Source of the DNA: Hymenobacter oligotrophus
GTDB lineage: Bacteria; Bacteroidota; Bacteroidia; Cytophagales; Hymenobacteraceae
Reading direction: 5' to 3'
DNA length: 64,000 nucleotides
Assembly (NCBI RefSeq): GCF_003574965.1
Contig: NZ_CP032317.1
Coordinates: 1,674,001-1,738,000 of the forward strand
Part shown: positions 1 to 64,000 of the stretch, piece by piece
Numbering within the stretch: position 1 is the first letter of the stretch
Layout of the letters: each line of letters opens with the position of its first letter
The notes under the pieces: model-generated
Databases searched by the model: none
The model's input: only the letters and a program-made list of their open reading frames with translations
What the model was told of the DNA's origin: nothing
Position numbers and translations under genes: made by a program

Positions 1-239
1 TTGGCCAGCAATTGCCCGCTTGCACCTCCAACAAATGGCTCGTGGGCCATACCCTAGGTGCCTCGGCAGCGCTCAGCCTGAACTATGCCTGCGAGTTGCT
101 GCTGGGTGCTACTCCGGCGGCGTTGCCCTTTGCATCCTGGCTCAACGAGCACCCCGTACGGCAGCCCTTGCGCCGCATTATGGTAAATGCAGCGGGCTTT
201 GGCGGCAACGCAGCCAGCGCCATCGTAGCCCTGGCCTGA
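1..239 (+). CDS. Beta-ketoacyl-ACP synthase, C-terminal end (partial)
   Basis: The reading frame is open from the window edge, so only about the last 78 residues are here. They contain the C-terminal ketosynthase signature: a Lys followed by GHTLGAS, which carries the second catalytic His, and then NAAGFGGNAAS close to the end. Family knowledge says this domain condenses an acyl chain with malonyl-ACP. The short C-terminal half and the wording of the motif also occur in ketosynthases of aryl-polyene or flexirubin pigment clusters, but the upstream genes are outside the window, so the pathway cannot be told. The first TTG in frame at position 12 is internal and not a real start. Confidence 0.85.
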   Translation, partial: GQQLPACTSNKWLVGHTLGASAALSLNYACELLLGATPAALPFASWLNEHPVRQPLRRIMVNAAGFGGNAASAIVALA

Positions 240-252
240 AACACCGCTGCGT

Positions 253-291
253 CCTAGGTGCCTGCCAGCTTTTTTCGCCCGGGCACCTAGG
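253..291. terminator. CCTAGG-type hairpin after ketosynthase
   Basis: CCTAGGTGCC (253-262) is followed 19 bases later by its exact reverse complement GGCACCTAGG (282-291). The loop contains a run of T. The site begins 14 bases after the ketosynthase stop, where a terminator would be expected. It is one of several hairpins in this window built on the same palindromic word. Confidence 0.5.
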
Positions 292-463
292 GCGTGGCGG
301 CGCAGGCGTAAGCCGCAGCCGCCGCAATCCTTGCAGATGTTGCTGACGCCTGGCTCGCCCTCTCCATCGGGACATGCGCATCGAGCATTTCTTCGGAGGC
401 CGTGCTCCGGAGGGGCCCCGTGAGGCCCCAATCGTTGCTGACGACCGCGCCGGCTTGGCTCCT

Positions 464-480
464 CCTCTCCACCGGAGAGG
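464..480. repeat. Short GC-rich palindromic repeat
   Basis: CCTCTCC, a three-base loop and GGAGAGG form a perfect small stem, followed by GGGGCCGGGGGGTGAGG. This resembles the common intergenic repeat of the form 'cctctcc-ggagagg-ggccggggg-tgagg' known from many bacterial genomes. Only one copy is seen here, so the repeat call rests on general knowledge. Confidence 0.35.
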
Positions 481-602
481 GGGCCGGGGGGGTGAGGCCA
501 TCGGGGGCCGGGGCATGAGGCCCCCGACTTTAACCGCACCCAGCGCGAAACTTTCCGACGGGCGCCGTAAGTTAGGCTCGCCAATTTCCCCAACGCCCCG
601 CC

Positions 603-1961: not shown

Positions 1962-1982
1962 CCCACGCCCGTCATCCTGAGC

Positions 1983-2047: not shown

Positions 2048-2058
2048 ACCGACGTTAG

Positions 2059-3435: not shown

Positions 3436-5544
3436 ATGACCCGTGCTGCCCTTGCCTTTGCTGCCGCGCTGCTTGCCTCCGGGCCCGCGCTGGCTCAAAC
3501 CCTCCGCTCCCCCTCCAACAAGCTCGCGCTCAACTTCCGCTTGAGCCCCGAGGGCGAGCCGCTGTACCAGCTCAGCTTCGGGCAGAAGCAAGTGCTGAAA
3601 CCCAGCCGCCTAGGTGTGTTGCTGCAAGGCCAGCCAGGGTTCGACAAAGGGCTGACGGTAATCAAAGTTGATTCGGCGCAGGCCGATGAAACCTGGGCGC
3701 CGGTGTGGGGCGAGGTGAAGCAAATTCGCAACCGCTACAAAGAGTTGCTGGTAACGCTGCAGCAACCGGGCACTGAAAAGCGGCAGATGCAGGTGCGTTT
3801 CCGGTTGTTTGACGACGGCCTGGGTTTTCGGTACGAGTGGCCGCAGCACCCCAACCTGCAGTACTTTGTGGTGCAGCAAGAGCGTACCGAGTTCAACCTG
3901 CCGGCCAACCACAAAGCCTTCTGGATACCCGGCGACTACGACTCGAACGAGTACGCCTACCAAACCACCCGACTGAGCGAGGTGAACACCCTGCCCATTA
4001 CGCCCATTCAGCTAAAGGCAGCGCCAACCACGGTGCAAACACCCCTGATGCTGAAATCGGACGATGGGCTGTACGTGAACATCCACGAAGCGGCCTTGGT
4101 GAACTACCCCGCCATGATGCTGAATGTGGACACTAAGAACTACGCCCTAGGTGCGCAGCTGGTGCCCACGGCCACCGGGGCCGCGGCTTACCTGCAAGCG
4201 CCCGAGCACACGCCCTGGCGCACGGTGGTAGTAAGCAACAAAGCCACCGAGGTACTGGCCTCGAAGCTTATTCTGAACCTGAACGAGCCCACCAAGCTGC
4301 AGGATGTTAGCTGGATTAAGCCGCAGAAGTTTGTGGGGGTGTGGTGGGAGATGCACGTCAACAAAGCCTCCTGGAACTACTCCGACACCGGCAACCTAAA
4401 GCTGGCCTCCACGGATTGGAACGCGCTTAAGCCCAACGGACGCCACGGCGCCAACACCGCCAACGTAAAGCGCTACATCGATTTTGCGGCCAAGCACGGC
4501 ATTGAGGGCGTGCTGGTAGAAGGCTGGAACGTGGGTTGGGAAGACTGGCACGGCAACTGGAAGGAAGAGGTGTTCGACTTTGTGACGCCGTACCCCGATT
4601 TCGACGTGCAGGAGCTGCAGCGCTACGCCGTGGGCAAGGGCGTAAAGCTGATTATGCACCACGAAACCTCGGGCTCGGTTACCAACTACGAGCGCCGCCA
4701 GGACGAAGCCTTGCGCTTTATGAAAGACCACGGCTACGATGCCGTGAAAACCGGCTACGTGGGCCGCATTATTCCGCGCGGGGAGCACCACGATGGCCAG
4801 TGGATGGTAAACCACTACAACCGCACCGCCGAGCACATGGCCAAGCGCCAGATTATGGTGGATATGCACGAATCGGTGCGCCCCACCGGCCTGCACCGCA
4901 CCTACCCCAACTGGCTGGCCAGCGAGGCGGCACGCGGCAACGAGTTCAACGCCTGGAGCGAAGGCAACCCACCCGAGCACGAAACCATTTTGCCCTTTAC
5001 GCGCCTGATGGGCGGCCCCATGGATTACACGCCCGGCGTATTCCAGATAAAGCTGGAAAGCTGGAACCCCGAGCGCAACAAAGGCCGGCAAGTGCACACC
5101 ACCCTGGCCAAGCAGCTGGCCCTGTACGTTACCATGTACTCGCCGCTGCAAATGGTCGCCGACCTGCCCGAAGCCTACGAGCAGCGCCTCGATGCCTTTC
5201 AGTTTATCAAGGACGTACCCGTGGATTGGGACGACACCCGCGTGCTGCTGGCCGAACCCGGCGACTACCTCACCATCGCGCGCAAAGCCAAAGGCAAAGA
5301 CGAGTGGTACCTAGGTGCCATTACCGACGAGCAGGCCCGCAACCAGCAAGTAAAGCTCGATTTCCTCTCGCCCAACACCACCTACGAAGCCACCATCTAC
5401 GCCGACGGCAAAGGCGCCGATTGGGAGAAAAACCCCATGGTGTACCAAATCCGGAAACAGCGGGTAACCAGCAAATCGAACTTAAAGCTGCAGTTGGCTG
5501 CCGGTGGTGGTACAGCCATCAGCTTTAAGCCCGCGCAGCGCTAG
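3436..5544 (+). CDS. Glycoside hydrolase family 97 (SusB-like alpha-glucosidase)
   Basis: A 702-residue secreted enzyme with a signal peptide ending near residue 21 (ALAQ). The start is ATG 3436; TTG 3427 is in frame but unnecessary. GH97 motifs are clear: HHETSGS, then DMHESVRPTG with Glu479, and EGNPPEHE with Glu514 and Glu516. The NPPEHE form and the HE motif match the inverting branch typified by SusB, not the retaining branch with an Asp nucleophile. It would release glucose from alpha-glucans, probably in the periplasm. Unlike the starch loci of Bacteroides, no SusC/SusD pair or regulator is next to it in this window. Confidence 0.9.
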   Translation: MTRAALAFAAALLASGPALAQTLRSPSNKLALNFRLSPEGEPLYQLSFGQKQVLKPSRLGVLLQGQPGFDKGLTVIKVDSAQADETWAPVWGEVKQIRNRYKELLVTLQQPGTEKRQMQVRFRLFDDGLGFRYEWPQHPNLQYFVVQQERTEFNLPANHKAFWIPGDYDSNEYAYQTTRLSEVNTLPITPIQLKAAPTTVQTPLMLKSDDGLYVNIHEAALVNYPAMMLNVDTKNYALGAQLVPTATGAAAYLQAPEHTPWRTVVVSNKATEVLASKLILNLNEPTKLQDVSWIKPQKFVGVWWEMHVNKASWNYSDTGNLKLASTDWNALKPNGRHGANTANVKRYIDFAAKHGIEGVLVEGWNVGWEDWHGNWKEEVFDFVTPYPDFDVQELQRYAVGKGVKLIMHHETSGSVTNYERRQDEALRFMKDHGYDAVKTGYVGRIIPRGEHHDGQWMVNHYNRTAEHMAKRQIMVDMHESVRPTGLHRTYPNWLASEAARGNEFNAWSEGNPPEHETILPFTRLMGGPMDYTPGVFQIKLESWNPERNKGRQVHTTLAKQLALYVTMYSPLQMVADLPEAYEQRLDAFQFIKDVPVDWDDTRVLLAEPGDYLTIARKAKGKDEWYLGAITDEQARNQQVKLDFLSPNTTYEATIYADGKGADWEKNPMVYQIRKQRVTSKSNLKLQLAAGGGTAISFKPAQR

Positions 5545-5555
5545 GTCAGTTTCAC

Positions 5556-5628
5556 GCAGAAGCCGCAGAGGGCTTACGCAGAAGGCGCCAAATCAGCGTC
5601 CTCCGCGTAAGCCCTCTGCGGCTTCTGC
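5556..5628. repeat. Long inverted repeat between convergent genes
   Basis: A 24-base arm (5556-5579, beginning GCAGAAGCCGCAG) is repeated exactly in reverse complement at 5605-5628, with a 25-base spacer. It sits between the ends of the convergent GH97 and DUF2911 genes, so it can act as a two-way terminator, although there is no T run. The wording resembles mobile intergenic repeats of related genomes. Confidence 0.7.
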
Positions 5629-5644
5629 GGGCTAACAATGCCGC

Positions 5645-6508
5645 TTACTTCTTGCCTTTCACCTCCTTAAGCAATTGCTCGTTCAGGCGGGTGTACTCGT
5701 CGCGGCTGTGTTCGTTTTTCTCCTGCTTCACGAGGGCCAACGACTGGCGCACGGCATCGGCGGCTTCGGCGTTGCGGTTGGCTTTCTGCAGCATTTTGCC
5801 CTTCCAGTAATAGGCGTAGTAGCTGGGCTGCTGCTTAATGGATTCGTCGAGCCAGGCAATGGCTTGGTTCAGGTCTTTGCCGGTGCTGTAGTAGTACTGC
5901 GCGGCGGCGAAGTACGGCTTCTTGTCCGTCTTCATGGCGTCCTGAATTTGCGCCATGATGCGGGCGTCGGCATCGGCCTCGATGGGCACGCTCACGCGCA
6001 CTTTGTCCCACCGCAGGTACAAGTCGGCGGCGGCAGGCTGCAGGTTTTCCAGCGTAATGGCAAACGACTCGGCGGCGGTGTTGGCGGTGCGCGGCTTGGC
6101 TTTCACGCGCACTTGGTCGAGTTCGGGCCGGTAGTCGTAGGCACCCCACTGCGAGGTGTCTTTGTTCAGAATGATGGTCCACTCCTTGGGGTCGGGGATG
6201 GTGAACAAGGCGTAGGTACCGGCCGGCACCACTTGGCCTCCAAATTTTACTTCCTCGCCAAACTTGATGCGGGTAGACGAGTTGGCCCCCGTGCGCCACA
6301 CCTGGCCGTAGGGCTCCAGCTTACCAAAGATGTCGCGGCCGCGCTTGGAGGGGCGGCCATACGTCAGCTCGATGTAGGACGTGGAGAAATCCTGCCGCAT
6401 GCGCACAGTAGGGCTCATCACGGGCAGGCGCAGTTGTTGGGCTTGCAGCGGCAGCGCGGCTACGCTACACAAGCCTCCAGCCAAAACCAGAGTGGAAAGT
6501 AGTTTCAT
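5645..6508 (-). CDS. DUF2911 domain-containing secreted protein
   Basis: A 287-residue protein with a signal peptide ending near residue 23 (LQAQ). The first two thirds match DUF2911: SYIELTYGRPSKRGR, GQVWRTGANSSTRI, PAGTYALFTIP and KEWTIILNKD. This is a beta-rich family common in Bacteroidota with no known reaction. The last third (about residues 190-287) is helical, with YYYSTGKDLNQAIAWLD and a following repeat that resemble TPR units, as in many members. It probably acts in the periplasm or on the surface. It is convergent with GH97, and no operon partner is visible. Confidence 0.85.
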   Translation of the reverse strand: MKLLSTLVLAGGLCSVAALPLQAQQLRLPVMSPTVRMRQDFSTSYIELTYGRPSKRGRDIFGKLEPYGQVWRTGANSSTRIKFGEEVKFGGQVVPAGTYALFTIPDPKEWTIILNKDTSQWGAYDYRPELDQVRVKAKPRTANTAAESFAITLENLQPAAADLYLRWDKVRVSVPIEADADARIMAQIQDAMKTDKKPYFAAAQYYYSTGKDLNQAIAWLDESIKQQPSYYAYYWKGKMLQKANRNAEAADAVRQSLALVKQEKNEHSRDEYTRLNEQLLKEVKGKK

Positions 6509-6711
6509 GCAGGTCGGGTGTGGAACTCAGTGGGGCTTACAAGCAAACATCGTCCCAGTACGGCCGAAAATTAGCAAGAAGCCCAACAAACGTTCGGTAA
6601 GGTAGCCGAATGCCGCCGAAATGCCTACGCCACAGGGCTCCGGCGCCTACAACGCAGCTCCGGTGTAGGTATTGCGCGTGCCGCACCAAGGCCCCAACGG
6701 CCCCAAACATG

Positions 6712-6749
6712 GCAACTGCTTCGGTGCCAAAAGGCACCGAAGCAGTTGC
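6712..6749 (-). terminator. Hairpin terminator after the beta-helix lipoprotein gene
   Basis: GCAACTGCTTCGGTGCC (6712-6728), a four-base AAAA loop and the exact reverse complement (6733-6749) form a 17-bp stem. It lies about 48 bases beyond the stop of the - strand lipoprotein gene. There is no T run, so intrinsic termination is likely but not certain. Confidence 0.55.
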
Positions 6750-6796
6750 ACCGAAATAGAACAATTGAATAGTAGTTAAGCCTAGGTGCGCGGCGC

Positions 6797-8521
6797 TTAG
6801 TGGCTTTGGTACAGAATGTGGCTACCCTGCACCCACACGCCCGGTAGCGTATCGATGTAGATGCCCCGCCAATCGTTGGCGGCGGGCGCGTTGGCGGTGC
6901 CGTTGCCGTTCGAGTCGCCCCCTAGGGCGTCGTCCTTCACGGAGGTAAAGCGTACGCCGGGGCCGTTGTGGTTTAGCAGTTGGCTGGTGCCGGTGCGCAG
7001 CGTCATTTGTAGGCCGGGGTTAAATTTCAGCACCACGTTGTTGCCGAGGGCCAGCGTGTTGGCAGGTGCCAGGTCGATGTTGCTCAGGTTCACAAATGCC
7101 ACCTCGGTTTCGCCCCAGCTCACGTTGGGCTTCAGCAGGTTCGCGTTCCAGTCGACGTAAATGCCTTGGTACTGGTTTTTCTCGGCCGCGTTGGCGGGGT
7201 TGCTGAAGGTGTTGGAGTCGTCGAGGTCGATGTTGGAGGTAATCGACAAGGGGCGCACGTTGTCGAAGAAGGTGTTGCTGCGGATAACGGTACCAGCGGC
7301 CGAGGCGTGGGCATCGAGCACGGCGCGGGTAGCCGTGCTCACATCGTCGCCGTTGTGGGCGAATACGCTGTTGCGCACCTCGGCCACGGCGCCGGTTAGG
7401 TTGAGTACCGTGCCGCCGCCGCCGCCGTAGTAAAAGCGGGAGTTATCGAGCACCGAGCCGGTGGTGGTGTTCAGCACCAAGCCGCGCCAGCTTTTGCGGG
7501 CCGGGGCCGTGGCATTGCCGTTGGCGTTGGTGTCGCCGCCCGTGGCATCGTCGTGGATGGACGTGAACACGACGGGCTGCGCCGCGGTACCATTGGCCAG
7601 TATGCGGCCCGAGCTGGCCGTGAGCACCAGGTTGCCTAGGTCGTCGAACTTCACCATCACGCCGGGCCCCAGGGTCATGGGCGCATCAAGCGTGAGGCCG
7701 CCCACCACAAAGGGCACTTCGGTTTCGCCCCAAGTCAGCGCTACCGAGGTGCTGCTGGCGTCCTCTACCCAAATGCCGTTGTGGTCGTTTTTCTCGGCCG
7801 GGTTGGCGGGGTTGCTGAAGGTGTTGGAGTTGTTGAGGCTATACAGATTGGTGATGCGCAGCGGCATTTCGTTCAGGTAGAACGCGTTGCCTTCGATTAC
7901 CGTGTTGGTAAGCGCACGGCTGGCGCTGAGGGCCCCTTTGAAGTTGGGCGCACCGCCGCCGTTGCGCACAAACCGGCAGTTGCGCACCGTAGCCGAAGCA
8001 TCAAACAGATCGAGCGTGGTGTTTGGCGCGCCGGCCCCACCGTACATAAACCGGCAGTGCTCGAAGCGCGAGCCGCTTTGGCCCGCAAGCGCAATGCTGC
8101 TCCAATTGCGCTTGGCCGGGGTAGTAGCAGCGCCGTCGTTGTTGGTGTCGCCGCCGTGGGCGTCGTCGAGAACCGAGGTAAACACCACAGGGTTATCCGC
8201 AGTACCCACCGCCTCGATGCGCCCACCAGCCGTTAACGACAAGCCTGCGTTGGCCTGAAACTTCACGATGGCTCCGGCCTCGATGGTCAGCGTGCTGCCC
8301 AGCGTGACGTTGGGCCCTACCACATACACTTTGCAGCTCTGCCAAGTAGTGGGCGTGTTGATGGCGCTGGTAACCGGCACCACTGTGTAGCTGCAGGTAT
8401 TGTTGCCGCCAGTAGGCTTGCCAGGCTCGGGCTCGTTGTTCTTGTTGCATCCGACCAGTGCGGCGAGGCCAAAGCTGCCAAGCAGCGCCGTGCGCAGCGC
8501 CGAGTTGCTAAGCGTTTTCAT
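6797..8521 (-). CDS. Lipoprotein with three beta-helix repeat units
   Basis: A 574-residue protein with a lipobox (LAALVGCNKN), so it should be lipidated at the Cys and exported. The mature part contains three copies of a unit of about 190 residues. Each has a sequence like GxxVKFxxxxxLxL, then VxFTSxxDDAxGGDTNxxG, then WRGxxx and a SRFxYGG or similar turn. The aspartate-rich GGDTNxDG loops look like calcium sites. Together these suggest a right-handed parallel beta-helix of the kind used for surface carbohydrate binding or adhesion. No catalytic motif was recognised. It has a good promoter upstream and a hairpin downstream, so it is probably monocistronic. Confidence 0.8.
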   Translation of the reverse strand: MKTLSNSALRTALLGSFGLAALVGCNKNNEPEPGKPTGGNNTCSYTVVPVTSAINTPTTWQSCKVYVVGPNVTLGSTLTIEAGAIVKFQANAGLSLTAGGRIEAVGTADNPVVFTSVLDDAHGGDTNNDGAATTPAKRNWSSIALAGQSGSRFEHCRFMYGGAGAPNTTLDLFDASATVRNCRFVRNGGGAPNFKGALSASRALTNTVIEGNAFYLNEMPLRITNLYSLNNSNTFSNPANPAEKNDHNGIWVEDASSTSVALTWGETEVPFVVGGLTLDAPMTLGPGVMVKFDDLGNLVLTASSGRILANGTAAQPVVFTSIHDDATGGDTNANGNATAPARKSWRGLVLNTTTGSVLDNSRFYYGGGGGTVLNLTGAVAEVRNSVFAHNGDDVSTATRAVLDAHASAAGTVIRSNTFFDNVRPLSITSNIDLDDSNTFSNPANAAEKNQYQGIYVDWNANLLKPNVSWGETEVAFVNLSNIDLAPANTLALGNNVVLKFNPGLQMTLRTGTSQLLNHNGPGVRFTSVKDDALGGDSNGNGTANAPAANDWRGIYIDTLPGVWVQGSHILYQSH

Positions 8522-8570
8522 AGGTAGGGAGGTTGGGGTGCGTAGCTGACCCTAGGTCAGATTGATGCCC

Positions 8571-8601: not shown

Positions 8602-8685
8602 TCACATATTCTGGTGATGATACAAGTACAGCCCTGCTGCTTTGAGACTTAATACTCAGCATTCAACAACACTTTGGGTTACTGA

Positions 8686-8728
8686 GCCCTAGGTGCCGAG
8701 CTTGAGCGCCCTACCCAGCACCTAGGGC
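8686..8728. repeat. CCTAGG-type inverted repeat
   Basis: GCCCTAGGTGC (8686-8696) and its exact reverse complement GCACCTAGGGC (8718-8728) flank a 21-base loop. It lies between two divergent promoters, so it is unlikely to be a simple terminator of either gene. It may insulate them or bind a protein. Confidence 0.6.
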
Positions 8729-12375: not shown

Positions 12376-14037
12376 TTAGTAGTAAATAGTCCAGGGGCCT
12401 ACTTGCTCGTGCTTGCCGAGGCCTTTTACCAAGTACTGCCGCTCGGCGGGCAATTCCTTTTTGGTCAGCACCACGGGGCGTTGGCGAAGCCAGGTACCTA
12501 GGGCCACGGTATCGGCGGGGTCTTGCAGGTTGATGAGGTGGCGGCGCCATTGCTCGTCGCGCTCGAATTGGGTTTCGCGCTGCAGGCTGTGGTTGCCATC
12601 GTAGAGCGAAACGGGCAGCTTGTGCTGCTCGAACGCCAACGAAGGCAGCAACTCGTTGTACACCAGCACTGGGCGTTGCGCCAGTTCCAGTTGCTTAAGG
12701 CGCTCGGCCACTGGGCGGCTGCCGTTGGCCTGTCCTTCTACCTGACCTAGGAATGCCTTGGCCGACACCAGCAGGCCCATCGTGAATACCACCGTGAGCA
12801 CCAGCAGCTTGGGGGCAATGCGCACTTCATCCCAAAACAAGTGCGTAAGCAGCAGCACCACCACACCTCCTGCGGGCCACATGGCCGTAACCGGGCTGAT
12901 GGTGAGGCCAAAGCCCGGACCGAAGATGGGCAGCAAGCACATGGCCCCGAGCAACAACCCGAACAACGACATAAAGCCCACATACCAGCGAAACAGCACC
13001 GCATCGGTGCGGCGGCCGAGCAGCTCCACCGTCAGCAGCGCCACCCCCGGAAATATGGGCAGCACGTAGAGCAGCAGCTTCGATTTGGAAAGCGAGAAGA
13101 ACACCAGCGGCACCAGCACCCACCACAGCAGCACTTGCCGCCACCGGGCACCTAGGCCGCGCCAGCCGGTGCGCACCACTTCGGCAATGAGCGCCGCCGA
13201 CCACGGCAAGCTGCCCAGGGGCGCCAGCACCACGTAAAACCACCACGGCTTAGCCCGGTTAAACGTGGCGGCGTTGGCAAAGCGCTGTACCGTGTGCTCG
13301 AACAGAAAATAGCGTAGGAACTTGGGGTCGTCGAGCAGTAGCAACAAGTACCAGCTGAGGCCCGCCATCACAAACAGCCCGAACGCCAGCAGGTGGTGCG
13401 CACTCCAGGGGCGGCGCGGCGCCTCGCGGTTGGTGTGTAGGCTGATTACGGCCATCAGCGGGAGCACCACTGCTACCGGGCCTTTCGTGAGGAAACCTAG
13501 CCCCAACGCTACCCAGCCTAGGTAAAGCCAACCCGCTGCCGGCTTGTCAGCGGGCGTGTAATGGTAGCGCACGAACGCATAAGCCGACAGCAGCTCCAGC
13601 GTAGCCAGGTAGGCATCGGTAGTTACGTTGAGCGCCGAAATAAGCACCACCGGCAGCGTGCCGTACACCACCGCCGTGGCAATGGCGCGGCGCTTATCGC
13701 CGCTGAACAGCAGTAGGCCCAAGCCGTACATCAGCGCCACTTGCCCTAGCACCGCCAGCACCGGCAGCACGCGCACCGCCCCGGCCGAAGAGCCGAACAG
13801 CCCTAAGCCAGCGGCCGTGAGCCAGTACGTAACGGGCGGCTTATGAAAATGCTGAATACCCAGCAGGCGCGGGTGCAGCCAATCCTGCCCCACCAACATT
13901 TCGCGGCCAATTTCGGCGTAGCGCGCCTCGCTGCTCTCGAGCACCCCCCAAGCGTTGAGGTTGACGAAGAACGCCGCACCTAGGGCTAGCAGCAGCAACC
14001 ACAACCACCAACGCGACGACATGGGTAAAGACGGCAT
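12376..14037 (-). CDS. GT39/ArnT-like membrane glycosyltransferase
   Basis: A polytopic protein of about 553 residues. The luminal acidic motif ESSEARYAEIGREM near the N-terminus and the following HFHKPPVTYWL are typical of ArnT/PMT-family (GT-C) enzymes, which move a sugar from a polyprenyl-phosphate carrier to lipid or protein on the periplasmic side. About ten hydrophobic segments follow up to residue 420, and then a soluble C-terminal domain. The start was taken at ATG 14037 (MPSLPMSS); the frame extends upstream to 14064. Lipid A or protein may be the acceptor, but the sequence does not say which. Confidence 0.85.
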   Translation of the reverse strand: MPSLPMSSRWWLWLLLLALGAAFFVNLNAWGVLESSEARYAEIGREMLVGQDWLHPRLLGIQHFHKPPVTYWLTAAGLGLFGSSAGAVRVLPVLAVLGQVALMYGLGLLLFSGDKRRAIATAVVYGTLPVVLISALNVTTDAYLATLELLSAYAFVRYHYTPADKPAAGWLYLGWVALGLGFLTKGPVAVVLPLMAVISLHTNREAPRRPWSAHHLLAFGLFVMAGLSWYLLLLLDDPKFLRYFLFEHTVQRFANAATFNRAKPWWFYVVLAPLGSLPWSAALIAEVVRTGWRGLGARWRQVLLWWVLVPLVFFSLSKSKLLLYVLPIFPGVALLTVELLGRRTDAVLFRWYVGFMSLFGLLLGAMCLLPIFGPGFGLTISPVTAMWPAGGVVVLLLTHLFWDEVRIAPKLLVLTVVFTMGLLVSAKAFLGQVEGQANGSRPVAERLKQLELAQRPVLVYNELLPSLAFEQHKLPVSLYDGNHSLQRETQFERDEQWRRHLINLQDPADTVALGTWLRQRPVVLTKKELPAERQYLVKGLGKHEQVGPWTIYY

Positions 14038-25312: not shown

Positions 25313-25993
25313 CTACCCTTCGTTGACTTTGGCCACGTAGCCCATGCCCACAAGCGTGTGAATGAGCTTGGGCGAAAACTCCTTGTCGATTTTTTTGCGC
25401 AAGAAGTTGATGTACACGTCGATGACATTGGAGCCGGTGTCGAAACTGGTTTCCCACACGTGCTCTAGAATATCGACGCGCGACACCACCCGCCCCTGGT
25501 TGCGCAGCAGGTAGTGCAGCAACGCAAACTCGCGGGCCGTGAGCTGAATGGGCTGCCCGGCACGCATTACCTGCTTGCTCATGGGGTCGAGGGTGAGGTC
25601 GGCGAGGCGCAGCACAGGTTGGCTGGGGGCCTCCTGCCGCCGCCGCGACAACGCCCGGATGCGGGCCAGCAACTCCTGAAAGGCAAAGGGTTTCACGAGG
25701 TAATCGTCGGCGCCGGCGTCGAGCCCCCGAATTTTGTCGTCGGTTTCGCCTAGGGCCGTGAGCATCAAGATGGGCACCCCCGTGTTGTGGGCGCGCACTT
25801 GCCGGCACACCTCCAACCCGCTCAGGCCGGGCAGCAGTTGGTCGAGGATGATCAAATCGTAGGACGTGGTAAGGGCCTGGCGCAAGCCCAGCAGGCCGTC
25901 GGCGGCAATATCAACCGAGTGGGTTTGCTCGCTCAGCCCCTTTTGCAGGAACGCGGCCACTTTCGGTTCGTCTTCAACCAACAGAATTTTCAT
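25313..25993 (-). CDS. OmpR-family response regulator
   Basis: A 226-residue regulator. The receiver domain starts MKILLVEDEP with the acidic pair Glu7-Asp8 and has the phosphoacceptor Asp51 in IILDQLLPG and Lys101 in VKPF. The C-terminal winged helix contains LTAREFALLHYLL and a DNA-recognition end (SNVIDVYINFLRKKID). The start is ATG 25993; the codon two triplets earlier is TTG. It is the cognate of the histidine kinase downstream. A 240-base spacer between them contains two CCTAGG words and no visible gene, so the pair may have separate transcripts. Confidence 0.92.
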   Translation of the reverse strand: MKILLVEDEPKVAAFLQKGLSEQTHSVDIAADGLLGLRQALTTSYDLIILDQLLPGLSGLEVCRQVRAHNTGVPILMLTALGETDDKIRGLDAGADDYLVKPFAFQELLARIRALSRRRQEAPSQPVLRLADLTLDPMSKQVMRAGQPIQLTAREFALLHYLLRNQGRVVSRVDILEHVWETSFDTGSNVIDVYINFLRKKIDKEFSPKLIHTLVGMGYVAKVNEG

Positions 25994-43643: not shown

Positions 43644-44873
43644 ATGCACGCAGTACTAAGTAGGGTTCAGCGCAGGGCTGGGCGTTTGTTGCGCGAGTGG
43701 GTACCGTACCGCCGCCACTACCGCCCGGTAGGCGTACATGCTAGCAGTGCCCAACTGGCCCAGCAGGCCGGCAGCGGTGCTACGTACAATGAAATTGAGC
43801 CGGCCCATACCTCCACGCTGGAGCTTCCGGCCGGCTTTTATGAGTGCGCGGCCGACTTTTCGGGCTTGCACGGCAAACCCAACGCTACCGAGCAGTTGCC
43901 CGCTGCTTTTGTGCTAACGCTGCGCAACGGCCGGGTGTACGCCGACAACCCCAACAGCGTAGCCATCATCAGCGCCGACAACCGGTTGGTGGGCGATGTA
44001 TCGTTTCAGTACGGCAACTCCTGGAACCTCGCGCAGCCCGAGCACAACAACATCTTTCGGCAGCAGTGGTTTGTGGCGCCTACCCGCATCGAGGGCACCG
44101 TGTTCAGCTTGCTTTCGGGCGGCGGCGCGGCCTCGGGCAACTACTACCACTGGCTCGTCGACTCGCTGCCCCGCTTGCACCTGTTGCAAGAGGCCGGACT
44201 GCTTGGCTCCGTCGATTACTTTTTGGTGTACAACCGCAACCACGGCTTCGTGCGCGAGAGCCTCGCGCACCTAGGCATTGGCCCCGAGCGCATCATCGAC
44301 GTAGAAACGCACCGCCACGTGCAAGCTACGCAGCTAATTGCCACTACCTCGGTGCGAGGCCAGGGTACCCACGTGCCCCGCTGGGCCAGCGACTACCTGC
44401 GCGCGGCATTTTTGCCCCCCGATGCGGCCGTAGCCAGCCGCTTCGGGCCGCTGGTTTACATCAGCCGCCGCGACGCTTCGATGCGCCTAACCCGCAACGA
44501 GGCCGAGGTAGAAAAGCTGCTACACGGCTACGGTTTCGAAACGCACGTGCTCAGCCCCTACTCGTTTGCCGAAAAGGTAGCCTTGTTTGCCGGCGCGCGC
44601 GTTGTGGTGGGCCCCGTCGGCGCGGGCCTTGCCAACCTGGTTTTCTGCCCCACCGGCGCCAGTGTAATTGAGCTGTTCTCGGAACACTTTGTGGTGGCCG
44701 ATTACCTCGACTTAGCTACCAAAGCCGGCATGCATTACCAATTTTTGGTCTCGACCCTAGGTGCTCTTGTAAAAGACCGACGCCAGGCCTGGGAAGAAGA
44801 CCTGCTGATTGACGTAGACGCCCTGCGTGCTCGGGTAGAGCCGCTCGTGGCCGCCAAGCAGCAACTTGCTTAA
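43644..44873 (+). CDS. GT61-family glycosyltransferase
   Basis: A 409-residue protein. The N-terminal 150 residues have no recognised motif. The C-terminal domain has NYYHWLVDSLPRLHLL, YISRRDASMR and GPVGAGLANLVFCPTGA, all typical of the GT61 (formerly DUF563) fold. GT61 enzymes transfer xylose, arabinose or GlcNAc in plants and animals; bacterial members work in polysaccharide synthesis. With a UDP-xylose-type pathway encoded downstream on the other strand, xylose is a fair guess for the donor, but that is inference only. Confidence 0.8.
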   Translation: MHAVLSRVQRRAGRLLREWVPYRRHYRPVGVHASSAQLAQQAGSGATYNEIEPAHTSTLELPAGFYECAADFSGLHGKPNATEQLPAAFVLTLRNGRVYADNPNSVAIISADNRLVGDVSFQYGNSWNLAQPEHNNIFRQQWFVAPTRIEGTVFSLLSGGGAASGNYYHWLVDSLPRLHLLQEAGLLGSVDYFLVYNRNHGFVRESLAHLGIGPERIIDVETHRHVQATQLIATTSVRGQGTHVPRWASDYLRAAFLPPDAAVASRFGPLVYISRRDASMRLTRNEAEVEKLLHGYGFETHVLSPYSFAEKVALFAGARVVVGPVGAGLANLVFCPTGASVIELFSEHFVVADYLDLATKAGMHYQFLVSTLGALVKDRRQAWEEDLLIDVDALRARVEPLVAAKQQLA

Positions 44874-44948: not shown

Positions 44949-46907
44949 ATGGCTACTTCCACTGCCACGCCTACGGCGTTGCTTTCCATTGTTACCTGGA
45001 ACAGCGCCGACACCATTGAACAGTGCCTTGCCTCGGTACTGGCGCAAGACCACCCCAACCTTCAGGTTTGGGTGGTCGATAATGACTCGACCGACGACAC
45101 CTGCGCCCGGGTGCAGCGCCTCATCGGGGGCGATGCGCGGGTGCAGCTGCACGCGCTGCCCCAAAACACCGGTTTTTGCGGCGGCCACAACTACGCCCTC
45201 GACCGCACCAGCACCGATTTTGTGTTGCTGGTGAACCCCGACGTGGTGCTGCCCCCCGACTACCTCAGCCACGCCTTACGCATTATGGAGCGCGACGAGC
45301 ACATTGGTACGGTGTGCGGCCTGCTGGTGCAAAGCGATGATGCCGACCCGCTCATCGACTCGGCTGGCATGAACCGTTACTCTGCCGGGCGCTTTGGCCT
45401 GCGCCTGCACGGCCAGCGCGTTTCGGAGGCGCGCCCCGAAGCCGGTTGGGTTGATGGCGCCGATGGGGCCCTGCCGCTGTACCGCCGCCGTTTTATCGAC
45501 GACCTGCGCGTGGCCGGCCATTTTTTCGACGAACGTTTTTTTGCGCACAAAGAAGACTGGGACATTGCCTGGCGCGGCCAGCTGTACGGCTGGCGCACTT
45601 GGTTCGAGCCCGGGTGCCGGGCGGTGCATCCGCGCGTTTTTCGCCCCGGCGACCTAACCCTGCGCCGCCGCCTAGGGGCCGCTATCAAAGCCGATGCTGT
45701 TAAAAACCAACTGCTGCTGCTCACCAAAAATGCGCCCGCCAAACCTGGTTTCTGGTTGCGGGCGCTGCCCCGGCAAGCGGCCGTATTAGCTTATACTTTA
45801 CTTATGGAACGCTCCTCGTTATCAGCTTATTCCTACATCTGGCGCCACCGGCGCGAGGTGCTAACCAGCCGGCGCCTGGTGCAAGCCCGTGCGCGCCTAG
45901 GTGCCCCAGTGCCCCAGGCCGCGGCCAACCAAACCAAGCCTGTGCTGAGCCTGTGCGTGCCCACCTACAAGCGGCCCGAACTGCTGGAGCGCACCCTGCG
46001 TTCCATTGGCCCGCTGCCCCCCGATGTGGAGCTGGTTATTTCCGACAACTCGCCGCTGGAGGATACGCGCAGCGAAGAGCTGGTGAAGCGCGTGCTGGCC
46101 GATGTGCCGGCCACCCAGTGGCGCTACTACCACAACCCGCCCGGCGGCACCACCGCTACCAACTTCAACCTGTGCATTCTGCGGGCCAAGGGTCATTACG
46201 TGATGCAATTTCACGACGACGACTACTTCTTCCCGGGGGGCCTGATGCTCATGCTCAACCGGCTGCGGCGCACGCAGCGCACCCACCCCGTGGTGCTGTT
46301 CGGCGTCGATCTGGTGGATATGCAAGAACGCTTTATTCGCCACCAAGGGGTAAAGCAAGAGGTGTTCCTGAAACCCGCCGACGCGCTCAAAGCGGTGCTC
46401 ACCAATTCTTCGCTGGTGCGCATGCCGGCCATGATCGTGAGCCGCGATGCGTACATGGCGGCCGGCTGCCTCGACGAGCAGCAGGGCCCCAGCGGCGACT
46501 CCGATATGTGGGTGCGCCTGTTTGCGCAGCACGGCGTGTTGCGCGTGCCCGAAACGCCGGCCGCCTACACCATTCACCAAGGCGCCGTTACGGCCCAAAT
46601 GTTTAACCAAGTAACCATCCGGCACCTGATGCGCATGTTCGATAAGGTGCGCACGGCCCAGCACTTGCCCGCCGAGGCGCTCGACCGCGCTCAGGCCAAC
46701 TATTTCTACCAATTTGTGTTGGCCGGTGCGTACCGGGCCCTGCAACGCGGCGACGTAGCCGAAGGGCGCCAAATTTTGGGGCTGCTGGGCACTCCGGAGT
46801 TGCGCGGCCTGCCAGTGCCCGTGCGCTGGTTGCCGGTGCGCGCGGCCTTCTCGCTGCTTTCGCGCCTCGATGGCCGGGTGGTTCGCCCGCTGCTGCCGTC
46901 GATATAG
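44949..46907 (+). CDS. Two-domain GT2-GT2 glycosyltransferase
   Basis: A 652-residue protein with two complete GT-A glycosyltransferase domains. Domain 1 (about 8-240) has LSIVTWNSADTIEQCL, VVDNDSTDDT and LVNPDVVLP. Domain 2 (about 330-560) starts LSLCVPTYKRPELLERTL and has VISDNSP and MQFHDDDYFFP, where DDD provides the metal site. A linker of about 60 residues lies between. Two activities in one chain would allow two sugars to be added in sequence. It is the last gene of the + strand half and is followed by a strong terminator. Confidence 0.82.
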   Translation: MATSTATPTALLSIVTWNSADTIEQCLASVLAQDHPNLQVWVVDNDSTDDTCARVQRLIGGDARVQLHALPQNTGFCGGHNYALDRTSTDFVLLVNPDVVLPPDYLSHALRIMERDEHIGTVCGLLVQSDDADPLIDSAGMNRYSAGRFGLRLHGQRVSEARPEAGWVDGADGALPLYRRRFIDDLRVAGHFFDERFFAHKEDWDIAWRGQLYGWRTWFEPGCRAVHPRVFRPGDLTLRRRLGAAIKADAVKNQLLLLTKNAPAKPGFWLRALPRQAAVLAYTLLMERSSLSAYSYIWRHRREVLTSRRLVQARARLGAPVPQAAANQTKPVLSLCVPTYKRPELLERTLRSIGPLPPDVELVISDNSPLEDTRSEELVKRVLADVPATQWRYYHNPPGGTTATNFNLCILRAKGHYVMQFHDDDYFFPGGLMLMLNRLRRTQRTHPVVLFGVDLVDMQERFIRHQGVKQEVFLKPADALKAVLTNSSLVRMPAMIVSRDAYMAAGCLDEQQGPSGDSDMWVRLFAQHGVLRVPETPAAYTIHQGAVTAQMFNQVTIRHLMRMFDKVRTAQHLPAEALDRAQANYFYQFVLAGAYRALQRGDVAEGRQILGLLGTPELRGLPVPVRWLPVRAAFSLLSRLDGRVVRPLLPSI

Positions 46908-47022: not shown

Positions 47023-47058
47023 ACCGCCCTAGGTGCCGGCGGCACCTAGGGCGGTTTT
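47023..47058. repeat. Perfect CCTAGG hairpin with T tail
   Basis: A 15-base arm (ACCGCCCTAGGTGCC, 47023-47037) and its exact reverse complement (47041-47055) surround a three-base loop and are followed by four T. It is the cleanest example of the CCTAGG hairpin family in this window. It lies just beyond the end of the - strand nucleotide-sugar dehydrogenase gene. Confidence 0.75.
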
Positions 47059-55876: not shown

Positions 55877-56011
55877 ACAGGTGGGGTTGTTGCAACAGGC
55901 AGGGCAGCGAGCCAACTCGGCACCGGCCCCTAGGGCTGGCGCACGGCGGGGCACCTAGGGCCCGCCGGGTGTGCTTGCCGCAGCAGCTGGCTGCCGACAA
56001 CAAATAGGGCG

Positions 56012-62048: not shown

Positions 62049-62663
62049 CTATACCCGTATGGGCGGCAACGACCAACCTTTTTTGGCAGCCAGCAGCCGA
62101 AAAACGGTAATCACGCCCACCGACACGAGGAAATTAATCGTCGGATCGAAGCCCAAAAACAGCAGCAGCACGTACAGCACCGCTCCGGTTAGGCAAGGCG
62201 TAGCGTACAGCTGCCGCTCAAACACCAGCGGCACCTCGTTGGCTAGCGTATCGCGGATGACGCCGCCAAACAGCGCCGACACAATGCCGAGCAGCACTGC
62301 CGCCCACGCGTTTACGCCCGCGCTCAGGGCCTTTTGCAGCCCCAGAATGGTAAATATGCCAATGCCCAAAGTATCGAACACCAGCAGCGGGCGCTGCAAC
62401 ACGCCCAACCACCAGCGCCGGCAAACCACGGCAATTAGTACGCTCGCGGTTATTACCACCAGGTAGTTGGCGTCGGTAATCCAAGCCACCGGATGGGTTC
62501 GAATGATGACATCGCGCAGGGTGCCGCCGCCCACTGCCGTCACAAACGCGAAGATGAACAGCGTGAGCACGTCGTGGTCTTTCTTCTTGTGCAAGGCGGC
62601 CAGGGTGCCCGATATGGCAAACACGCCGGTCCCGATTAAATCCGTCAGGTAGATTACACTCAT
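62049..62663 (-). CDS. TRIC-type (UPF0126) membrane channel protein
   Basis: A 204-residue protein from ATG 62663 with seven predicted hydrophobic helices. It is an internal repeat of two similar halves: the Gly-rich motifs VGGGTLRDVI and FGGVIRDTL mark each half. This is the UPF0126 family, whose members are trimeric intracellular cation channels, prokaryotic relatives of animal TRIC proteins that pass K+ or Na+. The in-frame TTG at 62678 gives only five extra residues and was rejected. Confidence 0.88.
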   Translation of the reverse strand: MSVIYLTDLIGTGVFAISGTLAALHKKKDHDVLTLFIFAFVTAVGGGTLRDVIIRTHPVAWITDANYLVVITASVLIAVVCRRWWLGVLQRPLLVFDTLGIGIFTILGLQKALSAGVNAWAAVLLGIVSALFGGVIRDTLANEVPLVFERQLYATPCLTGAVLYVLLLFLGFDPTINFLVSVGVITVFRLLAAKKGWSLPPIRV

Positions 62664-63016
62664 ACACAAACTCGTCAAGCGCCAAAGGTCGGGCCCCAGT
62701 TACCGAAGGTGCCCGTTAAAAAGCAAATTGTTGGCAGTGCGTACGCCGCCCGAACGGGTTGCGCCCGTGCGCTTGCGGCCCCGCTTAGGCCGAAGCTTTG
62801 CGGGCGAGGGCGTGCCGGCAACCGCGCTCCTCCTAGGTGCCGCCAGCCAAAGCGGTGCCGGGGAGCTGGCCCACTGCGTAGTTGGCGTAGTGTGCGCGAT
62901 AGGTTCGTCCTTTGCTCGTTGGGTGGGCTTGGCGGCTGGTTGCTGCAGCTAACGACGGGCAAAGCTATTGGCATTAAACAAAAAACCCTGCTTACTGGTC
63001 GTAAACAGGGTTTTAG
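62664..63016. other. Intergenic region before the tRNA
   Basis: This GC-rich spacer of about 350 bases holds one CCTAGG word near 62834 and ends with the terminator of the tRNA. A long open frame (62709-63071) crosses the tRNA and is not a gene. No promoter with a good TAnnTTTG was found. Confidence 0.6.
62980..63014 (-). terminator. Rho-independent terminator of the tRNA
   Basis: On the - strand AAAACCCTG and CAGGGTTTTT pair around a 15-base loop that itself has a TTAC/GTAA stem. A run of six T follows. It begins three bases past the tRNA 3' end. Confidence 0.8.
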
Positions 63017-63090
63017 TGGGCCCAGCTGGAATCGAACCAGCGACCTACTGATTATGAGTCAGTTGCTCTAACCGATTGAGCTATAGGCCC
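63017..63090 (-). tRNA. tRNA with CAU anticodon (elongator Met or Ile2)
   Basis: A 74-base cloverleaf on the - strand: acceptor GGGCCTA pairing with TGGGCCC, D-arm GCTC/GAGC, anticodon stem ACTGA/TCAGT with loop CTCATAA, and T-arm GCTGG/CCAGC with loop TTCGATT. The anticodon is CAT. The acceptor begins with a G1-C72 pair, so it is not an initiator. Either elongator tRNA-Met or tRNA-Ile2 (lysidine-modified) is possible. CCA is not encoded. Confidence 0.9.
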
Positions 63091-63179
63091 GGCTGAAACC
63101 TCAGTACTGAAAAGGCAGTTGGTTGGTTTCGGCGGCGCAATCTACCAATTTCGCGGGCTCATTACCAAATCTTGCGCTT

Positions 63180-63848
63180 ATGTCTGCTCCTGCGCGGCGG
63201 CTGCCCAACCTGCTTTTCGACTTCGGCGGCGTTATCATCAACGTCGATTACAACCGCACGCTGGAGGCCATGCGCGCCCTAAGCCGCGCGGGCTCCACCA
63301 TCGAGTTTACGCAGGCCTCGCAATCGGCTTTGTTCGACGAGCTGGAGACGGGCCGCCTCACGCCTGCCGAGTTCCGCACGGGCCTGCGCCACCACTACGA
63401 CCTGCACCACGCCACCGACGCCCAGCTCGACGAAGCCTGGAACGCCATGGTGCTCGATTTGCCGCTGGAGCGCATCGAGTACATTCGGGAACTGCGCCGC
63501 GAGGGCTACCAAACCGCGCTGCTCTCCAACACCAACAGCATCCACATCGACATGATTCTGGAGATGCTGCGGCGCCAGTACGGGTTGCAAAACGGCATTG
63601 CCGATGTGCTCGACCGCGTGTTCTACTCGCAGGAAGTGGGCCTACGCAAGCCGGGTAAGGAGGTGTTCGGGCACGTGCTGCGCGAGCTGAACTGGCGCCC
63701 CGAGGAAACTCTTTTCGTGGAGGATAGTATCCAACACATCCGGACGGCCGAAGCGCTGGGCATTCGCACGTTGTTTTTGCAGCCGCCGCTTACCCTCACC
63801 CAAGCCCTACCCGCTGCGCTCCGTGCCTTTTCCGTCCCTTCCACCTAG
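63180..63848 (+). CDS. HAD-superfamily hydrolase, probable phosphatase
   Basis: A 222-residue HAD hydrolase from ATG 63180 (MSAPARRL). Motif I appears as LLFDFGGVIINVDYN with the nucleophile Asp in DFGG, motif II as LLSNTNS, motif III as RKPGKEVF and motif IV as FVEDS. This pattern, with a helical cap inserted after motif I, is that of the YihX-like or epoxide-hydrolase-like HAD phosphatases. It would cleave a small phosphorylated metabolite. The frame opens earlier at 63123 without similarity. It overlaps slightly with the next start. Confidence 0.88.
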   Translation: MSAPARRLPNLLFDFGGVIINVDYNRTLEAMRALSRAGSTIEFTQASQSALFDELETGRLTPAEFRTGLRHHYDLHHATDAQLDEAWNAMVLDLPLERIEYIRELRREGYQTALLSNTNSIHIDMILEMLRRQYGLQNGIADVLDRVFYSQEVGLRKPGKEVFGHVLRELNWRPEETLFVEDSIQHIRTAEALGIRTLFLQPPLTLTQALPAALRAFSVPST

Positions 63849-64000
63849 CCCCCACGGCAGCGACCCGGCCACGCCGCCCGTTGGCCGCGCGCCCCACGCC
63901 CCGCTGCGCTGGCGGTGGCGGCGCTACGAGCGCCCCGAGCCCCCGCTCTGGCGCGTGGTGCTTGTGCACCTAGGGCTGTTTCTGATTACCCTGTACACCA
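63823..64000 (+). CDS. Start of a membrane protein (partial), site-2-protease-like candidate
   Basis: A GTG at 63823 opens a frame that runs to the window edge: a Pro-rich stretch (PFPSLPPSPHGSDP), a basic and aromatic part (RWRWRRYERPE), then a hydrophobic helix with HLGLFLITLY. It overlaps the end of the HAD gene by 26 bases. The order of basic segment and HLGLFL helix recalls site-2 protease (M50) proteins of Bacteroidota, but no HExxH is in view. Only about 59 residues are visible, so the start and the family are uncertain. Confidence 0.4.
   Translation, partial: MPFPSLPPSPHGSDPATPPVGRAPHAPLRWRWRRYERPEPPLWRVVLVHLGLFLITLYT

What the first reader, a model, noticed from the sequence alone, without database searches (positions are those of the whole stretch)
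1..64000. CCTAGG behaves like a highly iterated palindrome (HIP-like element)
By eye I found about 85 CCTAGG sites across the window, some in nearly every gene (for example 3609, 4146, 5310, 11008, 14792, 16467, 28722, 31103, 33075, 36427, 44757, 45896, 59838). At about 60 percent GC, roughly 20 would be expected, and CTAG is usually depleted in bacteria. Most sites are extended to CCTAGGTG or GCACCTAGG. In coding regions the word is mostly read as codons CTA-GGN (Leu-Gly), although CTA is otherwise rare here. This recalls HIP1 (GCGATCGC) in cyanobacteria. It could be a target of a methylase, a structuring protein or a repair system.
Basis: partly seen in the sequence, partly recalled or inferred. 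Interest (0 to 1): 0.75.

Follow-up and report, generated by a model that had tools for sequence, protein, structure and literature searches.

The report
Iterated CCTAGG word, uptake-signal-like
Some Hymenobacter-type bacteria carry one short DNA word thousands of times, some relatives carry different but similar words, and the pattern looks like the 'self' labels that a few other bacteria use when taking up DNA, though uptake was not tested here.

Summary
In detail: 85 CCTAGG in the window (13 expected) and 5678 in the 4.19-Mb Hymenobacteraceae genome, while five of seven congeners hold 123-249. In this genome it is not simply a palindrome but an oriented, bipartite motif: S-CCTAGG-T with a weak second element (about GGSRSC) at +29..+34 from the first base, seen again in 417 sites fetched after its discovery and weakly in unshared sites of two congeners. 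Both orientations are equal, it is densest in intergenic DNA just after stop codons, forms inverted pairs exactly 33 bp apart, and is scarce on three small contigs. Of 204 family genomes, 9 have 5325-8806 CCTAGG, with lineage-specific flanks. Some others iterate other words, mostly containing CTA: CCCTACCC, AACTATAG, AAGTATA. This resembles DNA uptake sequence dialects more than HIP1. None of three methyltransferase families is shared by G000 and congener G007, but pilus-type ATPases are absent too. Best reading, about even odds: a word raised by self-biased DNA uptake through a pilus-less machine. The responsible gene was not found.

The parts
1..64000 (.). 85 CCTAGG sites, 67 of them in the oriented form S-CCTAGG-T (37 on +, 30 on -)
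253..291 (.). inverted pair of CCTAGG 33 bp apart in a 20-bp hairpin (the first core is flanked by T, so it is not of the S..T form)
   Evidence: RNA fold -40.9 kcal/mol, 0 of 200 shuffles as good
8688..8726 (.). inverted pair of S-CCTAGG-T motifs 33 bp apart, in the divergent gap between ORF 6797-8521 (-) and the next + gene of the gene call
   Evidence: (RNA fold -22.0 kcal/mol, z -2.3, 4 of 200 shuffles as good)
47028..47050 (.). inverted pair of the motif 17 bp apart; 15-bp hairpin followed by UUUU
   Evidence: -32.3 kcal/mol, z -6.2
3609..3614 (+). motif; CCTAGG also in G007 and G005, GCTCGG in word-poor G003
4146..4151 (+). motif; CCTAGG also in G007 and G005, CCTCGG in G003
5310..5315 (.). 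CCTAGG flanked by A and T; kept in G007 and G005, CCTCGG in G003
13517..13522 (+). motif; kept in G007 and G005; CCGAGG in G003, CCCAGG in G004 and G001
25749..25754 (.). CCTAGG flanked by G and G; kept in G007 and G005; CCCAGG in G003, G004 and G001
44270..44275 (-). motif; kept in G007, CCTGGG in G005 and G003
45896..45901 (+). motif; kept in G007 and G005; changed in G003, G004 and G001
55954..55959 (-). motif; kept in G007 and G005; not aligned in the word-poor genomes

Best explanation
The iterated word is an uptake-sequence-like self label. Shown: in G000 it is an oriented bipartite site (S-CCTAGG-T, then a weak element about GGSRSC at +29..+34, roughly three helical turns away), spread at about 1.4 per kb on the chromosome in both orientations equally, present at places where word-poor congeners mostly have a sequence one or two bases different, most abundant in intergenic DNA near gene ends, paired as inverted repeats, and scarce on three small contigs; some relatives carry other flanks or other words. 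Inferred: a DNA-binding receptor at the cell surface or in the periplasm prefers DNA carrying the word, so alleles carrying it are imported and recombined into the chromosome more often. This drive fills the genome until it saturates near one site per kb. The receptor's specificity drifts between lineages and gives dialects; loss of the system lets the word decay. The import route would be ComEC-dependent and independent of type IV pili, as genetics suggests for Riemerella.
For: Flank interdependence: A on one arm goes with C or G on the other in 957 of 1165 sites; A with A only 31 against 253 expected. The +29..+34 block, found, is the strongest 6-bp block outside the core in 417 G000 sites fetched afterwards (p 7e-39), and is present in coding sites of either orientation and in intergenic sites without inverted partner. 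Orientation 428:419 over 37 stretches of 20 kb, homogeneous (p 0.96). Coding 1.03 per kb, intergenic 2.40; 5.7 per kb in the first 25 bp after a stop in tandem gaps and 8.1 in convergent gaps of 30-250 bp. 13 inward-facing pairs at exactly 33 bp against a mean of 0.3 per other distance; the 12 with a gene call all lie between genes, 4 convergent, 7 tandem, 1 divergent. Three small contigs: 2 sites in 51 kb against 70.6 expected. Other words; two sister pairs share a word. ComEC in 40 of 40 genomes. The eight genes essential for transformation in R. anatipestifer named in the abstract include ComEC, DprA, ComF and RecA and four unfamiliar proteins (PMC8459023, abstract, sections 19-20, passages); R. 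columbina is transformed less in the presence of its own DNA but not of foreign DNA (PMC7965970, passages). DUS dialects, intergenic placement and inverted pairs are described for Neisseriaceae (PMC3630211, abstract and passages).
Against: No receptor gene found. ComEC is equally present in word-poor genomes. No PF00437 (T2SSE/PilB/PilT) match above cut-off in 40 of 40 genomes, so the known DUS/USS machine is missing. The DUF5689 lead from Riemerella failed. Outside G000 the +30 element is weak: in 76 sites of G005 and G007 that are not shared with the window the block gives p 0.004 and the best block starts at +31/+32; the stronger pooled figure (p 5e-15) contains 84 shared sites. In species of the other genus it is not clear: no position above G 14 near +30 in 161 pooled oriented sites, weak signals at +28, +32, +33 when all G125+G140 sites are counted on both strands (G 14-17), and a hint in the CCCTACCC dialect with 49 sites that was gone at 98. 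Some dialects (ACCTAGGT, CCCTAGGG) are palindromic. Among oriented coding sites, 308 read sense and 231 antisense, probably codon constraint. Of the three window pairs folded, only one is followed by a U run, so terminator use is unproven. Nothing here shows that any Hymenobacteraceae is transformable.
Confidence: 0.45

Rival explanations
1. A HIP-like element: an orphan DNA methyltransferase marks the word, and methylation-directed mismatch repair or another strand-biased repair turns near-matches into the word (the model that Elhai proposed for HIP1).
For: Density about one per kb, palindromic core, palindromic 8-mers in some relatives, alternative words in some relatives as in cyanobacteria (PMC4390886: abstract, sections 7, 12, 19 and part 1 of 2 of section 18). 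G000 has one PF02384 and G007 one PF01555 gene whose specificities are unknown.
Against: None of PF00145, PF01555, PF02384 is shared by G000 and G007. Oriented flanks and a +30 element are not expected of a methyltransferase footprint. Words such as AACTATAG are unlike usual methylase targets (recalled). Other MTase families were not searched.
Confidence: 0.18
2. A binding site for an abundant chromosomal protein (nucleoid organiser, condensin loader or chromosome-wide regulator) whose sites are selected or protected from loss.
For: The bipartite site with about three-turn spacing and inverted similarity of its two parts suits a dimeric DNA-binding protein; window sites are more conserved than the mean hexamer (53 of 74 aligned in G007 and 46 of 70 in G005; means 0.53).
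Against: Selection would have to act on thousands of sites; five congeners live with 123-249; conservation is not exceptional (10th of 597 and 64th of 576 hexamer classes) and is confounded by codon use; scarcity on small contigs is not predicted.
Confidence: 0.22
3. A Chi-like or KOPS-like oriented signal for a helicase-nuclease or translocase.
For: Oriented, iterated, chromosome-wide.
Against: Orientation 428:419 with no heterogeneity among 37 stretches (p 0.96); palindromic core.
Confidence: 0.05
4. Biased gene conversion by a mismatch-specific endonuclease (Vsr-like or unknown) acting on near-matches without methylation.
For: Word-poor congeners mostly have a near-match at the same place (1-2 differences at 82 of 125 aligned places in G001, G003, G004), often CCTGGG or CCCAGG.
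Against: No Vsr (PF03852) in G000 or G007; the differences are what Leu-codon degeneracy would give anyway; does not explain the +30 element.
Confidence: 0.1

Closest known systems
DNA uptake sequence (DUS) dialects of Neisseriaceae
   Same: Thousands of copies per genome, both orientations, intergenic preference, inverted pairs, lineage-specific dialects around a short core (CTG there, PMC3630211; CTA in most words here)
   Different: No type IV pilus/T2SS ATPase match above cut-off in 40 of 40 genomes; no receptor known; uptake not shown; some dialects palindromic; AAGCCCCC (borderline) and AAGTATAA have no CTA on either strand
USS of Pasteurellaceae
   Same: Oriented core plus weaker downstream elements at helical spacing (recalled for USS)
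   Different: Second element is GC-rich, about three turns away, and clear only in G000 and weakly in its two congeners
HIP1 (GCGATCGC) and alternate HIPs of cyanobacteria
   Same: Iterated at about 500-2500 per Mb (PMC4390886 section 7), palindromic core, sporadic alternative words in relatives
   Different: Oriented flanks and bipartite structure in this genome; no methyltransferase family among three tested shared by G000 and G007
Natural transformation of Riemerella (Bacteroidota)
   Same: Same phylum; ComEC needed; competition by own DNA reported in R. columbina (PMC7965970, passages)
   Different: No iterated word mentioned in the passages read; its DUF5689/outer-membrane pair was not recognised as such here

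Membership tests
DUS/USS (uptake sequences) | Short word iterated about once per kb in both orientations | tested here: met
   5678 in 4.19 Mb; 1165 in 844 kb; orientation 428:419
DUS/USS (uptake sequences) | Oriented, non-palindromic motif | tested here: met
   Met in G000, G005, G007; not met in the ACCTAGGT and CCCTAGGG relatives
DUS/USS (uptake sequences) | Inverted pairs between genes, some acting as terminators | tested here: inconclusive
   13 pairs at 33 bp in 844 kb; 12 of 12 gene-called pairs are intergenic; three window pairs fold as hairpins, but a U run follows only one and function is untested
DUS/USS (uptake sequences) | Scarce in recently acquired DNA | tested here: met
   2 in 51 kb of three small contigs against 70.6 expected, one of them related to Hymenobacter plasmids; last 10 kb of L051 without a site
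DUS/USS (uptake sequences) | Dialects that follow the phylogeny | tested here: inconclusive
   Two sister pairs share a word, one borderline; many word-poor lineages lie between (one gene, 34 rows)
DUS/USS (uptake sequences) | Type IV pilus/T2SS-type machine with a word-binding receptor | tested here: not met
   PF00437 above cut-off in 0 of 40 genomes; controls match in 14 of 14, over cut-off in 13
DUS/USS (uptake sequences) | Inner-membrane DNA channel ComEC | tested here: met
   40 of 40 genomes, word-poor ones included
DUS/USS (uptake sequences) | Word increases uptake or transformation | not testable with these tools
   needs an uptake assay
HIP (highly iterated palindrome) | Palindromic extended word | tested here: not met
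   In G000 ACCTAGGT has 31 sites against 253 expected, CCCTAGGG 14 against 97; met in some relatives
HIP (highly iterated palindrome) | Methyltransferase able to modify the word | tested here: inconclusive
   No family among PF00145, PF01555, PF02384 shared by G000 and G007; specificities and other MTase families untested
Chi/KOPS | Orientation bias along the replichore | tested here: not met
   428:419 over 37 stretches, heterogeneity p 0.96; origin and terminus were not mapped
Vsr-type repair footprint | Vsr gene | tested here: not met
   PF03852 no match in G000 or G007; one each in G005 and word-poor G001

The most novel reading that the evidence does not exclude
A family of Bacteroidota (Hymenobacteraceae: Hymenobacter, Pontibacter and kin) uses lineage-specific, roughly 8-bp self words, mostly built on CTA, read by an unknown bipartite DNA receptor of a pilus-independent natural transformation machine. 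None of my ten paper searches listed uptake sequences for this family, and comparing genomes that differ in their word would let the receptor be found.
Probability: 0.4. Interest if true: 0.9.

Novelty: new variant of a known kind. Interest (0 to 1): 0.8.

Why it matters
If true, it shows self-labelled DNA uptake in a phylum whose uptake machine seems to lack type IV pili and is largely unknown. It offers a natural experiment: three word-rich and five word-poor species within one genus, and several words among close relatives, which makes the receptor gene and the origin of uptake sequences directly searchable. Even if uptake is wrong, thousands of copies of an oriented bipartite site that come and go within a genus demand a strong, unknown driving process.

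Tried and rejected
Methyltransferase/HIP: PF00145 and PF01555 in 8 congeners, PF02384 in 22 genomes; none shared by G000 and G007. Vsr: no match in two of three word-rich congeners. Pilus machine: PF00437 in 40 genomes, none above cut-off. DUF5689 lead from Riemerella: searched in 204 genomes; 5 of 6 high-CCTAGG species of genus g5 have a strong hit, and looking beside low-CCTAGG carriers led to the other words, but the gene lies in a FecI/FecR/SusC/SusD/phosphoesterase/GDPD-like operon in the g5 genomes compared (SusC, SusD, phosphoesterase and GDPD by Pfam in G125; homologous clusters; the names FecI and FecR are recalled) and G005, G109 and G164 have no hit, so I dropped it. Genes around comEC in G000, G003, G125, G207: no candidate seen; most of these genes were judged from homology among the four and not named by a search. 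A +29/+31 hint in the CCCTACCC dialect (49 sites) disappeared with 98 sites. A strong word in G017 (z 29.5, 9 copies, all intergenic) looks like a longer repeat and was not counted. AACAACGG in Hymenobacter edaphi is coding only and was taken as a codon effect. Borderline words, z 8-14: G080 and G164 TGGCCTA-type, H. latericoloratus and HSC-4F20 CTACCCC, CA2-7 GGCTAGCC, BT188 and H. qilianensis AGCCCCC-type, P. vulgaris AAGTATA, G214 AACTATAA; outside the family Aquirufa TGATATCA and Mucilaginibacter kameinonensis CCTGCAGG. Word-poor congeners reach up to 12.2, and 14.1 for one CAGCAGCAC-type word, where 9-mers were allowed and no spread filter was used.
Full report
Check of the observation. 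The window contains exactly 85 CCTAGG; shuffles that keep dinucleotides give 13.0 on average and 23 at most. The window is G000:C1:1674001-1738000 of a 4,188,814-base assembly in four contigs, with 5678 CCTAGG and 67 of the reversed control word. In an 804-kb sample the word exceeds an order-2 Markov expectation 7.9-fold and an order-3 expectation 4.6-fold. Of 659 coding sites, 602 read NNC-CTA-GGN, and 602 of 1668 CTA codons are in that context.

Organism. The first 20 kb of contig C2 match 25 plasmid records, 24 of them Hymenobacter. By NrdA the genome groups with Hymenobacter edaphi and Hymenobacter sp. 15J16-1T3B, support 100/100, both of which have 0-2 CCTAGG in 22 kb. The name of the own record is not shown by the tools.

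A natural experiment within a genus. Of 8 genomes of the genus, three have 5325-6212 CCTAGG (G000, G005, G007) and five have 123-249. By topoisomerase III, G005 and G007 are nearer to G000 (94 and 98% identity) than the five (88-90%). Aligned to the window, CCTAGG is present in G007 at 53 of 74 aligned sites, in G005 at 46 of 70, in G001 at 1 of 43, in G003 at 0 of 41 and in G004 at 0 of 41. In these three word-poor genomes 82 of the 125 aligned places differ by one or two bases, for example CCTCGG, CCCAGG, CCTGGG; 8 have a gap. So the sites seem to be born by substitution in place. Among hexamer classes with at least 35 aligned copies the mean conservation is 0.53 in each comparison; CCTAGG ranks 10th of 597 and 64th of 576: above average, not extreme, and confounded by codon use.

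The element is oriented and bipartite. Among 1165 sites in 844 kb of G000, the bases just outside the two arms are far from independent: A on one arm goes with C or G on the other in 957 sites, A with A occurs 31 times against 253 expected, C with C 14 against 97 (chi-square 717, 6 df). Read in the S-CCTAGG-T direction, a second element about GGSRSC appears at +29..+34 from the first base of the core. It was found in the first sample. In 417 oriented sites of G000 stretches fetched later, the block at +29 is again the strongest outside the core (p 7e-39). It is present in coding sites in either orientation, tested against a codon-phase background (p 3e-7 and 1e-8), and in intergenic sites without an inverted partner. 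In G005 and G007 the pooled figure is p 5e-15, but 84 of the 160 oriented sites in the aligned regions are shared with the window; in the 76 not shared the block gives p 0.004 with the best block at +31/+32. The preferences are weak at each position (for example G 0.47 at +30, A 0.34 at +32). The letters resemble the inner half of an inverted copy of the core, and 13 complete inverted pairs face each other at exactly 33 bp, against a mean of 0.3 at other distances.

Placement. Density is 1.03 per kb in coding and 2.40 per kb in intergenic DNA, 5.7 per kb in the first 25 bp after a stop codon in tandem gaps and 8.1 per kb in convergent gaps of 30-250 bp. Orientation is 428:419 over 37 stretches without heterogeneity (p 0.96; extremes 2:8 and 14:6). 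Relative to genes, oriented coding sites are 308 sense and 231 antisense. Of the 33-bp pairs, 12 lie in gene-called sequence: none inside a gene, 4 convergent, 7 tandem, 1 divergent. The pair at window 47028-47050, 17 bp apart, folds as a 15-bp hairpin followed by UUUU (-32.3 kcal/mol), and that at 253-291 as a 20-bp hairpin (-40.9 kcal/mol); terminator function is not shown. The sampled parts of three small contigs (42, 32 and 11 kb; 51 kb sampled) hold 2 sites against 70.6 expected; that all three are plasmids is not shown. The last 10 kb of stretch L051 hold none.

Relatives. Of 204 genomes of the family, nine have 5325-8806 CCTAGG, four have 1209-2331, and no other has more than 888. The high ones differ in flanks: S-CCTAGG-T in the own genus, the same plus CCCTAGGG in G125, ACCTAGGT in G070 and G076, CCCTAGGG or CCCTAGGC in G109. 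The first contig of G140, 102 kb, has 0.5 per kb in the 100 kb read. G076 is probably Hymenobacter crusticola, because both have a contig of 824,280 bases.

Other words. I looked for over-represented words in 20-kb stretches chosen beside DUF5689 genes, in 20 further genomes, 18 of them without the 430-aa DUF5689 gene, and in named loci of a scan with NrdA (72 of 80 loci were long enough). The three calls used slightly different settings, so I repeated the test with one setting (6-8-mers, order-2 model, copies spread over the stretch). Outside the family 0 of 40 loci exceed z 12.4, and 0 of 12 stretches of the word-poor congeners G001, G003, G004 exceed 12.2. The cut of 14 was set after seeing these. 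Above it are, besides CCTAGG-rich genomes: G060 and G074 (CCCTACCC), G222 (AGGTATAG), G197 and G207 (AACTATAG-type), G200 (AAGTATAA); that is 4 of the 12 low-CCTAGG genomes and, of the 20 genomes, G200, G207 and G109 (the last chosen for its CCTAGG count), with G017 left out as a repeat. Among named loci, 6 of 32 in the family pass: H. crusticola ACCTAGGT, H. polaris CCCTAGGG, H. ginkgonis CTACCCCC/CCCTACCC, Pontibacter sp. 172403-2 AAGTATAA, Pontibacter sp. Tf4 CAACTATA and P. fetidus ACTATAGT. G080 (CTAGGCCA, 13.9) is just below; G164 (GTGGCCTA, 9.7) passed only through a 9-mer. The words of this paragraph and the borderline ones occur at 0.4-2.2 per kb in coding and 0.7-5.1 per kb in intergenic DNA (Hymenobacteraceae rows), unlike the codon-driven control AACAACGG with 12 coding and 0 intergenic copies. 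In the NrdA tree P. Tf4 and P. fetidus are sisters, BT188 and H. qilianensis (borderline AAGCCCCC) are sisters, and H. ginkgonis, H. polaris, CA2-7 (borderline GGCTAGCC) and one wordless MAG form a supported group, as if the word could shift stepwise.

What drives it. A drive is needed to raise and keep thousands of copies; known kinds of iterated oligomers are Chi, uptake sequences and HIP (PMC4390886, introduction passage). The partner of HIP is a methyltransferase (PMC4390886). G000 has no PF00145 or PF01555 match and one PF02384 match; G007 has no PF00145 or PF02384 match and one PF01555 match on a 12.5-kb contig; G005 has matches to all three. So no tested family is common to the three. 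Vsr was not found in G000 or G007. Chi-like use is disfavoured by the equal orientation.

Uptake-sequence reading. Density, orientation, downstream element, intergenic and inverted-pair placement, scarcity on small contigs, and different words in relatives parallel DUS and USS (PMC3630211, abstract and passages; the USS downstream tracts are recalled). Against it, no PF00437 match above cut-off was found in 40 genomes. Bacteroidota can nevertheless transform: a screen in Riemerella anatipestifer named ComEC, DprA, ComF, RecA and four unfamiliar proteins as essential (PMC8459023, abstract, sections 19-20 and passages), and in R. columbina own DNA but not foreign DNA competes (PMC7965970, passages). 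ComEC is present in 40 of 40 genomes here, word-rich and word-poor alike, so it permits but does not discriminate. The gene that does was not found.

Literature. Ten searches, covering CCTAGG, highly iterated palindromes, Hymenobacter with natural transformation, methylome or DNA uptake, uptake sequences with Bacteroidetes or Cytophagales, Riemerella transformation and DUF5689, listed no paper whose title or shown abstract start describes this. The library holds open-licence PubMed Central papers only. One paper lists GCCTAGGC as a depleted control palindrome (PMC1939737, one passage).

Confidence. Near certain: the iterated word, its orientation and the +29..+34 element in G000, the intergenic preference, the scarcity on the three small contigs, and several different words in relatives. 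Moderate: that these are dialects of one system. Somewhat under even: that the system is self-biased DNA uptake. On checking I lowered this from 0.50 to 0.45 and the novel case from 0.45 to 0.40, and raised two rivals slightly, because the +30 element is weaker in unshared sites of the congeners and terminator use of the pairs is not shown.

Noticed in passing
G000 genome-wide; other genomes: GGATCC is strongly avoided in G000 (67 copies) and falls to 0-10 copies in 32 genomes of genus g5, against up to 325 in others: perhaps restriction history.
   Followed up: no
window 27139-29520 and 44949-46907: Polysaccharide genes: a Wzc-like tyrosine autokinase and a glycosyltransferase.
   Followed up: no
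G000:C1:2800001-2820000 (L051): CCTAGG falls to 7 in 20 kb and 0 in the last 10 kb, which carry a HlyD-type adaptor; the first part has an ABC ATPase (best NCBIfam match GldA, below its cut-off) and a 1207-aa protein without NCBIfam match, with 83 and 75% relatives in G092.
   Followed up: partly
G000:C2 (L077): 42-kb contig related to Hymenobacter plasmids with heavy-metal efflux genes.
   Followed up: no
L182 (G017), 20 kb: About 9-12 copies of a repeat containing CCGTCGGCC/TCGGCCGA, all intergenic.
   Followed up: no
L227, L229 (Aquirufa), L268 (Mucilaginibacter kameinonensis): Weaker palindromic words TGATATCA and CCTGCAGG outside the family, possibly similar phenomena.
   Followed up: no
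L149, L150, L151 and other loci: Conserved SusC/SusD/DUF5689/phosphoesterase/GDPD gene cluster in the g5 genomes compared.
   Followed up: partly
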